Part shown: one piece after another, positions 60,477 to 64,000 of the stretch
Numbering within the stretch: the stretch's first letter is position 1
Layout of the letters: each line of letters starts with the position of its first letter
Assembly (NCBI RefSeq): GCF_041080865.1
Contig: NZ_CP160906.1
Location: forward strand, 2,294,001 to 2,358,000
Source: Psychromonas sp. MME1
GTDB lineage: Bacteria > Pseudomonadota > Gammaproteobacteria > Enterobacterales > Psychromonadaceae
DNA length: 64,000 nucleotides
Direction of reading: 5' to 3'
Translations under genes and position numbers: made by a program
Notes under the pieces: generated by a model
What the model was told of the DNA's origin: nothing
Seen by the model: only the letters and a program-made list of their open reading frames with translations
Databases searched by the model: none

Positions 60477-61154
60477 ATGAGAAAAATAATAAAACCTATT
60501 TCTAGGGAAGATAATTTCTATTACATGCTAATCAGCCTGATACTTTTACTTTTCTCTAATGCCTGCATTGAACAATTTTTTCTTGATTCTCTATTTATTC
60601 ATGAATTATTTACCCTATTAACCATCACCTCTATGTCCATATCCATTTTCGGTTTACGTTCCAGCGGCATCGCGTTTAAATCGGCAATCGGGTTAATTAT
60701 CACGATTATCGTAATGACAACGCTAATCACAAACTTTAGGGAAGCCGACCTCGCTATTACACAACTTGTTTTAATGTTAATATTTTTTTCCATGCAGATA
60801 AAATTAGCTATACAACAAGTACTGTTTTCCAGCGATAAAATAACAGGGAATAGTTTAGCGGGCTCAATTTGTATTTTTTTATTGTTAGGCATTATTTGGC
60901 TGCTACTCTACTCAATCACCATTGAATTAATGCCTAACTCATTCTCCGGTCTACCGCAAGATACATGGCCAGGTAATTTCTCAGGGATCATCTATTATAG
61001 CTTTGTTACCTTAACCACATTAGGCTTCGGCGATATATTACCGCTCTCTCCCACTGCACGTTTCTTAACCTATATGGAAGCCATTGTGGGTGTCTTTTAC
61101 ATGGCAATCTTCGTTTCTAGTTTAGTGGGTGCAGCAATGCAGCGTAAAAGCTAG
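60477..61154 (+). CDS. Potassium channel family protein (two-helix pore domain)
   Basis: The 225-residue membrane protein has about six hydrophobic segments. The last two flank the pore helix and selectivity filter: YYSFVTLTTLGFGDILPLSPTARFL near residues 178-202, where TLGFGD replaces the usual TVGYGD. The N-terminal segments (about 16-90) are not a recognisable voltage sensor. No cytoplasmic RCK domain follows. The following gene starts 5 bp after the stop, suggesting an operon. Confidence 0.85.
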   Translation: MRKIIKPISREDNFYYMLISLILLLFSNACIEQFFLDSLFIHELFTLLTITSMSISIFGLRSSGIAFKSAIGLIITIIVMTTLITNFREADLAITQLVLMLIFFSMQIKLAIQQVLFSSDKITGNSLAGSICIFLLLGIIWLLLYSITIELMPNSFSGLPQDTWPGNFSGIIYYSFVTLTTLGFGDILPLSPTARFLTYMEAIVGVFYMAIFVSSLVGAAMQRKS

Positions 61155-61159
61155 ACCGT

Positions 61160-61975
61160 ATGTTTTATGAAGGGAGAGAAAAACGTTTAGAAATAATTAT
61201 AACTGGGCATAACCTACTAGAATATTCAGAGTCATTTTGGATAGAGATGGTCAGTGAAGCGAATACCAATATCCTTTCACAAATTAAAAATAAACATATT
61301 AGTGCCTATTTATTATCAGAATCGAGCCTATTTGTTTGGCATAATAAAATTTTGCTCATCACCTGCGGTAACACGCATTTAGTGAAAGCGGCACAATATT
61401 TCCAAAAAAAAATCCCCAAAAAGAATATTATTTCATTACTATTTCACCGCCACCAAGCGATACAGCCAAATCGACAAAAAAGTAGTTTTGAACAAGATAG
61501 TCAACTTTTAACGGCAGATCTTAATGGTATCACTCAGCACTGGCGAGGCGATTATCGAGGCGATCTATTCTATTTTACAAATAAAGAGCCTAACTCCGAT
61601 TACAAACAAATCTTAATGTGTCATAACTTAACAGGTGAGTTAACGGAAAAGGCGCAATCCGGTTTACTTTCAACGGCAGAGATGGAGAGTTATCTCTCCA
61701 TTAATTGCTTTTTCGACGACCTTATCATTGATCAATTTACCTTTGAACCTAAGGGCTATTCATTAAATGCGGTCTGCGCAAATGACTACTTAACTATTCA
61801 CCTTACTCCTGAAAAGTTAAGTAGCTATCTAAGTGTGGAAACCAGTTTTAACAACGCTAACAGCAAGGCACTGATGGCGCATATTGTAAAACTATTCAAA
61901 CCACAACAGAGTCATTTAATGTGTTTTAACTCAACAGAGCAAAGTGCGTTACAGATAAGTTTACATCCCCACTAA
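61160..61975 (+). CDS. Eukaryotic-type S-adenosylmethionine decarboxylase homologue
   Basis: The 271-residue protein resembles eukaryotic AdoMetDC, not bacterial SpeD. It starts FYEGREKRLEI as human FFEGTEKLLEV. SESSLFVW around residue 54 matches SESSMFVS, where the chain cuts before serine (here Ser55) to form the pyruvoyl group. TCGNT gives Cys69, equal to human Cys82 at the same 14-residue spacing. GYSLN and TIHLTPE (Ser201, His214, Glu218) correspond to human Ser229, His243, Glu247, and SYLSVET to SYVSFET. It would decarboxylate SAM to supply aminopropyl groups for spermidine. It lies 5 bp after the K+ channel. Activity is inferred. Confidence 0.85.
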   Translation: MFYEGREKRLEIIITGHNLLEYSESFWIEMVSEANTNILSQIKNKHISAYLLSESSLFVWHNKILLITCGNTHLVKAAQYFQKKIPKKNIISLLFHRHQAIQPNRQKSSFEQDSQLLTADLNGITQHWRGDYRGDLFYFTNKEPNSDYKQILMCHNLTGELTEKAQSGLLSTAEMESYLSINCFFDDLIIDQFTFEPKGYSLNAVCANDYLTIHLTPEKLSSYLSVETSFNNANSKALMAHIVKLFKPQQSHLMCFNSTEQSALQISLHPH

Positions 61976-62000: not shown

Positions 62001-62693
62001 TTAAGGATTCAATAAAAATACCGCCTGTACCCTGTCCGTTAAGGTCATTTTTTTCGACTGGTAAGTTGCTTCAGCTTGCTCATCTTGCATACTTTTCATC
62101 ATCATCATCGGCTGCACATAATTATTCTGATAATTAATCGAATAGATCTGACCCAATTTAGCTCCGTAGGCGGTAGCTAACACCTCCGCTTTCATCAATG
62201 AATCCTCTATGGCCATTTGTCTAATCTTTGCTCGCCATTGCTCCGGTGAAGCTAAACTATATTCCAATGCATTGATTGACTCTATTTGAGACGATAAAAC
62301 CGTATCTAAAAAGCGATTTAACCCATCGATGTTCGTTAACAGATAACTTAAATCACGTATTGCGCGTATTCCGACTAAGGTACGTTTCCTATCGTCATAT
62401 TGATACTCTTCACCACTATATAGATCAGCCCTTTGTAAAAGCGCCGTATCAAATCCAGCTGCTTTTAAATTAGCCAACAAAGCCTCAACTTGTGAATCAA
62501 CCTTCATTTTTGCTTCTTTGGCATCTTTTTCTAGCGCTTGGGCGCGAAACTTAATAGTCACTTGATCAGGCATAACAGCCAAGGAAGCAATACCAGTCAC
62601 TGATATAGAAGGCTGATTAGGCAATGCCTCAGCGGAAGTTGAAGTGGATACAATAAAGGTTAACAAAACAATACAGTAATTAATCACTCGCAT
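62001..62693 (-). CDS. SIMPL-domain (DUF541) exported protein
   Basis: A 230-residue protein with a signal peptide (about residues 1-23, ending TSTSAEA), then the SIMPL pattern: PSISVTGIASLAVMPDQVTIKFRAQA, followed by helix KMKVDSQVEALLANLKAAG and YDDRKRTLVGIRAIRDLSYLL. The family is periplasmic and often linked to oxidative stress (YggE), but the role is unsettled. It is convergent with the AdoMetDC gene, 25 bp apart. Confidence 0.88.
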   Translation of the reverse strand: MRVINYCIVLLTFIVSTSTSAEALPNQPSISVTGIASLAVMPDQVTIKFRAQALEKDAKEAKMKVDSQVEALLANLKAAGFDTALLQRADLYSGEEYQYDDRKRTLVGIRAIRDLSYLLTNIDGLNRFLDTVLSSQIESINALEYSLASPEQWRAKIRQMAIEDSLMKAEVLATAYGAKLGQIYSINYQNNYVQPMMMMKSMQDEQAEATYQSKKMTLTDRVQAVFLLNP

Positions 62694-62981: not shown

Positions 62982-64000
62982 TTATAAAACGTCGATAGCG
63001 TTAAGGTCTGCAAACGCTTTTTCAAGACGCGCAACCATAGACTCTTGACCTGCACGTAACCATACACGTGGATCATAGTATTTTTTATTCGGTGCATCTT
63101 CACCCGTTGGGTTACCGATTTGACCTTGTAAGAAATCGTGGTTTTTAGCTTCGTAACCACGGATACCATCCCAACATGCCCACTGTGTATCTGTATCGAT
63201 GTTCATTTTGATAACACCGTAACCGATAGACTCTTGGATTTCAGCTTCAGATGAACCAGAACCACCGTGGAATACGAAGTTTAATGTATTCGCTGGAAGA
63301 CCGTGTTTTTCAGAAACATAAGCTTGAGAATCACGTAGAATAGTTGGTGTTAACTTAACGTTACCAGGCTTGTATACACCGTGTACGTTACCGAAAGAAG
63401 CTGCGATTGTGAAGTTAGGGCTAACTTTAGAAAGTTCAGTGTACGCGTAATCAACTTCAGAAGGTTGAGTATAAAGTAGAGACTCATCCATACCTGAGTT
63501 ATCAACACCGTCTTCTTCACCACCAGTACAACCTAATTCGATCTCTAATGTCATACCCATTTTAGCCATACGTGCTAGGTATTTAGAACAGATTTCGATG
63601 TTCTCTTCTAAAGACTCTTCAGAAAGATGATCATGTGTGAAGAGAAAAGAGGTTTACCAGTTGCAGCAAAGTGCTCTTCAGATGCAGTTAGTAGCCCGTC
63701 AATCCAAGGAAGCAATTTTTTAGCTGCGTGGTCAGTATGAAGAATAACAGGTACACCATAAGCTTCAGCCATTGCGTGAACGTGCTTAGCACCTGAAACA
63801 GCACCAAGAATTGCCGCTTCTTGACCTTCAAGTTTAAGACCTTTACCTGCGTTAAATGCAGCACCGCCGTTAGAGAATTGAACAACAACAGGCGCTTTAA
63901 CTTTAGCTGCTGCTTCAAGTACTGCGTTGATTGAATCAGAACCAACAACGTTTACCGCTGGAAGTGCAAATTTGTTTTCTTTTGCAACTGCAAATACTTT
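62982..64000 (-). pseudogene. fbaA: Class II fructose-bisphosphate aldolase, frameshifted and cut by window edge
   Basis: The C-terminal frame (62982 to about 63630) carries MTLEIELGCTGGEEDGVDNS, FHGGSGSS and IKMNIDTDTQWACWDGIRGY, the class II aldolase motifs with zinc ligands. Upstream the other frame carries ALPAVNVVGSDSINAVLEAA, FSNGGAAF, HTDHAAKKLLPW and ATGKPLFSSHMI. They join if one G is restored in ATCATC at 63628-63629, giving SHMIDLSEESLEENIEICSKYL. This glycolytic/gluconeogenic enzyme is normally essential, so a sequence error is strongly favoured. The N-terminus is beyond position 64000. Confidence 0.9.

What the first reader, a model, noticed from the sequence alone, without database searches (positions are those of the whole stretch)
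61160..61975. Eukaryotic-type S-adenosylmethionine decarboxylase in a bacterium
The sequence aligns by eye with the human enzyme rather than with bacterial SpeD. The self-cleavage Glu-Ser-Ser, the catalytic Cys at the same 14-residue spacing, and the Ser and His that carry out processing are all present. The protein is shorter (271 versus about 334 residues). It suggests ancient transfer or an overlooked bacterial branch of the family.
Basis: partly seen in the sequence, partly recalled or inferred. Interest (0 to 1): 0.82.

Follow-up and report, generated by a model that had tools for sequence, protein, structure and literature searches.

The report
Eukaryotic-type SAM decarboxylase in Psychromonas
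A marine bacterium carries the type of polyamine enzyme otherwise typical of animals and plants; bacterial copies of this kind were already known, but this one has lost its usual partner gene and probably feeds an unusual membrane-bound enzyme instead.

The parts
61160..61975 (+). class 2 (eukaryotic-type) S-adenosylmethionine decarboxylase proenzyme, 271 aa
   Evidence: PF01536 154.8 bits; AF2 model matches human AdoMetDC
61319..61324 (+). codons of Glu54-Ser55, predicted self-cleavage site giving the pyruvoyl group on Ser55
   Evidence: aligned to human E67-S68; invariant in 70 rows
61364..61366 (+). codon of Cys69, predicted catalytic acid (human C82)
61760..61762 (+). codon of Ser201, processing serine (human S229)
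61799..61801 (+). codon of His214, processing histidine (human H243)
60477..61154 (+). Ion_trans_2 potassium-channel-like membrane protein directly upstream, 5-bp gap, probably co-transcribed; the linkage is seen in only part of the genus
   Evidence: PF07885 51.8 bits; recognised directly upstream of the gene in 6 of 16 named Psychromonas loci, some of which begin too close to the gene to tell; a PLD-family protein upstream in two others tested
62001..62693 (-). convergent SIMPL (DUF541) gene, conserved downstream neighbour in the genus; no functional link claimed
   Evidence: PF04402 127 bits; found downstream in 15 of 16 named Psychromonas loci (L132 ends before it)

Best explanation
The gene encodes a working class 2 AdoMetDC. 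The proenzyme cuts itself between Glu54 and Ser55, Ser55 becomes a pyruvoyl group, and the enzyme decarboxylates SAM to dcAdoMet. In this genus it no longer serves a soluble spermidine synthase. Its dcAdoMet goes to the only aminopropyltransferase found in the genome, a 566-aa protein with about seven transmembrane segments encoded elsewhere next to DUF350 and a lipoprotein-like gene, which transfers the aminopropyl group to an acceptor other than putrescine, probably at the membrane. Triamines can come from the AdoMetDC-independent dat-ddc-CANSDH-CANSDC operon. The enzyme is predicted to be largely insensitive to putrescine. Shown here: family, predicted fold, catalytic residues, no SpeE or SpeD found, co-occurrence with the 7TM enzyme. 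Inferred: activity, dcAdoMet flow, acceptor, putrescine insensitivity.
For: Family, fold and residues. Own genome: a single PF01564 match, inside the 566-aa fusion (NF002956 621.7 bits, cut-off 472); hydropathy gives 7 hydrophobic segments in its N-terminal half; GGGDG and DLPDP motifs kept. No class 1 SpeD over the cut-off. SpeA, CANSDC (nspC 493.1, cut-off 409), CANSDH (837.1, cut-off 800) and a dat-family aminotransferase (TIGR00709 536.1, cut-off 401.6) pass their cut-offs; the ddc-like ORF has L-2,4-diaminobutyrate decarboxylase as its best hit but below the cut-off (375 of 900). Among 99 genomes, 40 of 41 with the fusion have some AdoMetDC, against 13 of 58 without it; outside Psychromonas 18 of 18 against 13 of 57 (Fisher 2e-9, not corrected for relatedness). 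The one fusion genome without AdoMetDC is 79% complete. Class 2 genomes: 30 of 35 fusion only, 4 SpeE only, 1 both, 0 neither. Human putrescine-site D174/E178: kept in 37/37 and 36/37 SpeE-adjacent bacterial rows, absent in 8 of 8 other Psychromonas rows; the window keeps an Asp but has Gln at 178. Recalled from the abstract of Li et al. 2019 (not held): some class 2 and many class 1b AdoMetDCs go with such fusions, the AdoMetDCs are active, and the fusion does not complement an E. coli spermidine synthase deletion.
Against: No direct link between the two genes: they lie 1.9 Mb apart on the contig (about 1.7 Mb the other way if it is circular), and co-occurrence is partly shared ancestry. P. 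marina reportedly accumulates spermine/thermospermine (PMC11999265), so the acceptor could be a plain polyamine. Putrescine-site loss is not strict for fusion-only genomes: two of the three g6 genomes (probably Shewanella, by tree position) in the 99-genome set keep D174 and E178, and G098 keeps E178. E256 is kept in Psychromonas, so the site is not wholly gone, and the alignment of the shortened loop is uncertain. TIGR00535, NCBI's equivalog model, is matched only below its cut-off (99.3 of 233 bits). The ordinary family name of the fusion in NCBIfam is polyamine aminopropyltransferase. No activity was measured.
Confidence: 0.6

Rival explanations
1. The AdoMetDC and 7TM aminopropyltransferase together make a tetraamine (spermine, thermospermine or norspermine) from triamines supplied by the carboxy(nor)spermidine route.
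For: PMC11999265 (passages and section 5): P. marina was reported to accumulate Spm/Tspm, but its CASDH/CASDC pair gave only a trace in E. coli, about 200-fold less than the P. denitrificans pair. In the passages I read, that paper mentions no AdoMetDC or APT for P. marina. P. marina carries both: class 2 AdoMetDC on NZ_BSPQ01000001.1 and, on the same contig (G010:C1; identical over the 7780 bases compared), the 7TM-APT. The APT domain scores best against 7xif and 1uir, both named polyamine aminopropyltransferase, and in the longer query scores thermospermine synthase 6bq2 (86.5 bits) above several spermidine synthases.
Against: Motifs fit neither class cleanly: GGGDGL with DLD, against GGGD(G/C)G for SpmSyn and GGGEGA for TspmSyn (PMC11107197, passages). 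A membrane part, DUF350 and a lipoprotein-like gene are not expected for a soluble polyamine route. With the shorter query spermidine synthase 3o4f (79 bits) outscores 6bq2 (69.3).
Confidence: 0.18
2. Ordinary spermidine synthesis: the 7TM fusion is simply a membrane-tethered spermidine synthase, and AdoMetDC is its normal partner.
For: NCBIfam names the fusion a polyamine aminopropyltransferase; SpeA is present, so putrescine is plausible; AdoMetDC and fusion co-occur.
Against: The recalled abstract of Li et al. 2019 says the fusion does not complement an E. coli spermidine synthase deletion; a second triamine route exists in the genome; most putrescine-activation residues are lost.
Confidence: 0.12
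3. The protein has changed substrate and is now an ornithine or arginine decarboxylase, as some class 1b SpeD homologues are.
For: Such shifts are documented for class 1b (PMC10407285), and here SpeE is missing.
Against: Human positions F7 (Tyr here), F223 and E247, which I recall as SAM-binding, are aromatic or identical in the window; SpeA and an AAT-fold decarboxylase already exist; the 7TM enzyme would then have no dcAdoMet source that I found.
Confidence: 0.05
4. A decaying remnant without function.
For: Shortened C-terminus and lost regulatory residues; frames of two other genes in this assembly look broken.
Against: Gene intact here and found in 22 of 24 Psychromonas genomes, the two misses being 79% and 51% complete; catalytic residues invariant in 70 rows.
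Confidence: 0.03

Closest known systems
Human AdoMetDC (AMD1; class 2; PDB 1jl0, 1msv)
   Different: 271 versus 334 aa, 26% identity; F7 is Tyr, K80 is Ile, E178 is Gln; putrescine activation predicted weak or absent
Bacterial class 2 AdoMetDC (Li et al. 2019, recalled; cited in PMC10407285)
   Same: Same family and same bacterial side of the tree
   Different: Of the 64 other named loci read, 40 have spermidine synthase directly behind; the 61 that entered the site count mostly keep D174/E178, and the other rows whose tail was printed are longer. Psychromonas has none of these. Whether the 2019 paper described this clade could not be checked
Potato AdoMetDC (PDB 1mhm)
   Different: Plant sequence, 21-22% identity over the aligned part, longer
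7TM-spermidine-synthase/DUF350 operon with PspA (PMC11237479, passages; example AAN56744.1, recalled as Shewanella oneidensis)
   Same: A lipoprotein-like gene, DUF350 and 7TM-APT cassette is in the own genome and in the 9 other Psychromonas fusion loci read
   Different: In the own genome no pspA or DUF2170 gene was seen beside it; in the one g6 locus tested, they follow it
Class 1b SpeD (Thermotoga maritima 1tlu, 1vr7)
   Different: A chain of about 120 residues; PF02675 scores only 22.8 bits on the window protein, under its cut-off of 25

Membership tests
Class 2 AdoMetDC (Pfam PF01536) | Profile match over the curated cut-off along most of the protein | tested here: met
   154.8 bits, cut-off 22.2, residues 2-263
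Class 2 AdoMetDC (Pfam PF01536) | Glu-Ser cleavage site, catalytic Cys, processing Ser and His | tested here: met
   E54-S55, C69, S201, H214, invariant in 70 rows
Class 2 AdoMetDC (Pfam PF01536) | Two-domain alpha-beta-beta-alpha fold in one chain | tested here: met
Class 2 AdoMetDC (Pfam PF01536) | Self-processing and SAM decarboxylation | not testable with these tools
   needs purified protein
NCBIfam TIGR00535 (adenosylmethionine decarboxylase equivalog) | Score over the equivalog cut-off of 233.15 bits | tested here: not met
   99.3 bits; so not filed under this equivalog
Human-type putrescine-activated AdoMetDC | Acidic putrescine site D174, E178, E256 | tested here: not met
   Window D147 aligned to 174, Gln150 at 178, Glu227 at 256; 0 of 8 other Psychromonas rows keep an acid at 174 or 178, 8 of 8 keep E256; loop alignment is uncertain
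Class 1 SpeD (PF02675) | Profile match over the cut-off | tested here: not met
   22.8 bits, cut-off 25, C-terminal half only
7TM aminopropyltransferase partner (NF002956) | Full-length match and intact aminopropyltransferase motifs | tested here: met
   621.7 bits, cut-off 472; GGGDG and DLPDP
PspA-linked 7TM-APT operon | pspA and DUF2170/DUF4178 genes beside the cassette | tested here: not met
   own genome: neighbours in L033 read as lpxK-, kdsB- and transporter-like ORFs, and the 155-aa ORF behind the fusion has no Pfam match; present in L084 of another genus (DUF4178 there only below its cut-off)

The most novel reading that the evidence does not exclude
Class 2 AdoMetDC is not a eukaryotic invention lent to a few bacteria but an old enzyme with a deep bacterial history, centred on Bdellovibrionota and usually encoded there in front of spermidine synthase; eukaryotes would have received it from bacteria. 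The Psychromonas copies would then be a late bacterial offshoot that lost the spermidine partner and was rewired to the 7TM aminopropyltransferase.
Probability: 0.2. Interest if true: 0.75.

Novelty: new member of a known kind. Interest (0 to 1): 0.4.

Why it matters
It ties an already described but unexplained pair (AdoMetDC plus a membrane-fused aminopropyltransferase) to a genus in which no canonical SpeD or SpeE was found, so the function of that pair can be tested there without background. It also offers a concrete lead for the spermine/thermospermine reported in P. marina, whose CASDH/CASDC pair makes only a trace. And it shows that bacterial class 2 genes are numerous and, in the loci read, mostly in front of speE, which makes the published eukaryote-to-bacteria direction worth re-testing with wider sampling.

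Tried and rejected
PF02675 similarity as a sign that bacterial class 2 keeps an ancestral link to class 1b: rejected. It appears in the window and in some Psychromonas-like copies but in 0 of 27 other bacterial rows and 0 of 27 eukaryotic or eukaryote-grouped rows at E up to 0.01.

Potassium channel as a dedicated partner: rejected as a general claim. It was recognised upstream of the gene in 6 of 16 named Psychromonas loci; two others tested have a PLD-family gene there.

Strict rule that genomes with only the 7TM-APT lose the putrescine site: rejected; two of three g6 genomes in the 99-genome set keep D174 and E178.

Direction of transfer from the tree: not resolved. The careful tree has 87 rows: from the 120-row set I dropped 8 long-branched or odd rows (L082, L078, L195, L141, L184, P0270, P0271, P0297) and 25 near-duplicates; 3 truncated loci (L140, L177, L188) never entered; 8 of 16 named Psychromonas loci were used. 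Of the 21 eukaryotic rows 10 have an organism or eukaryotic source; nine rows without a usable organism name and two unnamed AdoMetDC-ODC fusions were counted as eukaryotic because of where they fell or what they resemble, so that grouping is partly circular. Eight of the bacterial-side rows are also unnamed. No land plants were sampled. My minimal-ancestor-deviation script puts the root on the eukaryote/bacteria branch (0.238; next 0.255, inside the eukaryotes beside Trypanosoma), which is weak evidence. P0271 sat just outside the eukaryotes.

The first genome-contig scan with the single protein found nothing; the alignment query found 355 loci, of which 80 were returned. Literature: searches. 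Li et al. 2019 and Bale et al. 2008 are not held, so what the 2019 abstract says is recalled. I found no paper joining P. marina's tetraamine to AdoMetDC in these ten searches, which is not proof that none exists.

Full report

WHERE IT IS FOUND. The host is a Psychromonas (named relatives; tree); its species was not determined. PF01536 occurs in 35 of 99 genomes of the relatives set, in 22 of 24 of this genus counting the window's own; the two misses are 79% and 51% complete. In a draw from the phylum it is in 10 of 398, own genome included. A pattern scan of species genomes gave 402 candidates, 355 confirmed, of which the best 80 were returned and read: 16 Psychromonas and 64 others, mainly Bdellovibrionota (26), Colwelliaceae, Ferrimonas, Kangiella and Endozoicomonas, with single loci such as Shewanella, Grimontia and Kordiimonas. 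These 80 are ranked by similarity to the query, so they are not a fair sample of the 355.

PARTNERS. In the 64 non-Psychromonas loci, a canonical spermidine synthase gene directly follows in 40 (25 of 26 Bdellovibrionota); in Psychromonas, 0 of 16. One of the 40 (L190) is a 69-aa fragment; a few loci end soon after the gene and could not show it. In the window's genome the only spermidine-synthase match is the C-terminal part of a 566-aa protein with seven hydrophobic segments, next to DUF350 and a lipoprotein-like gene. The same cassette is in the 9 other Psychromonas fusion loci I read and in three further genera. PMC11237479 (passages) describes such an operon with PspA. Over 99 genomes, 40 of 41 with the fusion have an AdoMetDC of class 1 or 2, against 13 of 58 without it; class 1 over its cut-off and class 2 never occur together in them; and no Psychromonas has a canonical SpeE or a class 1 SpeD over its cut-off (0 of 24 each, tallied). 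The classes used there (fusion: frame of at least 500 aa and 100 bits; SpeE: at least 150 bits) are my own cut-offs. Some Psychromonas genomes have a second, weak PF01564 match (under 35 bits, frames of about 256-286 aa, one of 900), which I did not count as SpeE.

OTHER POLYAMINE GENES. The genome has SpeA (879.9 bits) and an operon of a dat-family aminotransferase (TIGR00709 536.1, cut-off 401.6), a ddc-like decarboxylase (best model L-2,4-diaminobutyrate decarboxylase, 375 bits, below its cut-off of 900), CANSDH (NF043000 837.1, cut-off 800) and CANSDC (nspC 493.1, cut-off 409). PMC11999265 (passages) reports the aminotransferase and decarboxylase in P. marina and infers norspermidine. So norspermidine, and perhaps spermidine, need no AdoMetDC here; P. 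marina CASDH/CASDC made spermidine in E. coli in that paper.

WHAT HAS CHANGED IN THE PROTEIN. Human D174 (a listed putrescine contact in PMC3686867, passage) and E178 (titles of mutant structures) are kept in 37 of 37 and 36 of 37 speE-adjacent bacterial rows, in 19 and 21 of 24 non-adjacent rows, and in 0 of 8 Psychromonas rows chosen from the 16; the window has Asp and Gln. The four g12 rows lack E178 too. After the column of human residue 269, 32 residues remain in the window, 29-46 in those 8 Psychromonas rows, 14-27 in g12, and 59-77 in the other rows printed (24 non-adjacent and 11 unnamed; the speE-adjacent ones were not printed). Psychromonas and three g12 rows form one clade (99/91; the fourth, L082, was left out as long-branched) that shares both changes.

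MECHANISM. Self-cleavage, pyruvoyl formation and SAM decarboxylation follow from the family. The step that needs explaining is what uses the dcAdoMet. The 7TM aminopropyltransferase is the only candidate found in the genome. GGGDG and DLPDP are intact in 17 of 17 loci looked at, and 16 share the core DLPDPSHPDLNK (the other, L086, is a different 509-aa protein). It goes with AdoMetDC across the order. The recalled 2019 abstract says such a fusion does not replace spermidine synthase in E. coli. I therefore favour a non-putrescine acceptor at the membrane. The main rival is a tetraamine synthase: P. marina is reported to hold spermine/thermospermine that its CASDH/CASDC pair makes only in trace (PMC11999265), and P. 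marina carries both genes. The aminopropyltransferase motifs fit neither the spermine nor the thermospermine pattern of PMC11107197 (passages), so this stays open.

ORIGIN. In the careful tree of 87 rows, 21 eukaryotic (or eukaryote-grouped) rows lie on one side of a 100/99 branch and 66 bacterial (or bacteria-grouped) rows on the other; the root by minimal ancestor deviation falls on that branch, with a place inside the eukaryotes second. Bdellovibrionota rows spread over the deep part of the bacterial side, with the gammaproteobacterial groups inside. PMC10407285 states a eukaryotic source; this sample neither shows bacteria nested in a eukaryotic group nor rules it out, because plants and many protists are missing and nested alternatives were not tested by AU.

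NOVELTY. Bacterial class 2 AdoMetDC and the 7TM fusion are both in print. New here, as far as I could check, are the genus-wide absence of canonical SpeD and SpeE with class 2 retained, the joint loss of putrescine-site acids and C-terminal tail, the class 2-speE pairs in Bdellovibrionota, and the P. marina link. I could not read the 2019 paper, so some of this may be in it.

Noticed in passing
   Followed up: partly
P0271: A 770-aa protein carries PF01536 with PF13614 (AAA_31); it sits just outside the eukaryotes in the quick tree.
   Followed up: no
L033:7230-7453 (own genome, between DUF350 and the 7TM-APT gene): Tandem array of a 39-bp unit, 5.8 copies, 98% matches, in front of the aminopropyltransferase gene.
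   Followed up: no
window 62982-64000 (-) and L203:2812-4094: The reading frames of a fructose-bisphosphate-aldolase-like gene (window) and a lysA-like gene (L203) look interrupted in this assembly; sequencing error or real, not tested.
   Followed up: no
L124:3224-4837, L128:3313-4863: In part of the genus a phospholipase-D-family gene, not the potassium channel, lies upstream of the AdoMetDC gene.
   Followed up: partly
P0278, P0280, P0281, P0298, P0300, P0301, P0305, P0307: Proteins of 753-1036 aa join class 2 AdoMetDC to an ornithine/arginine decarboxylase (PF02784, PF00278); one is named as the red alga Pyropia vietnamensis.
   Followed up: no
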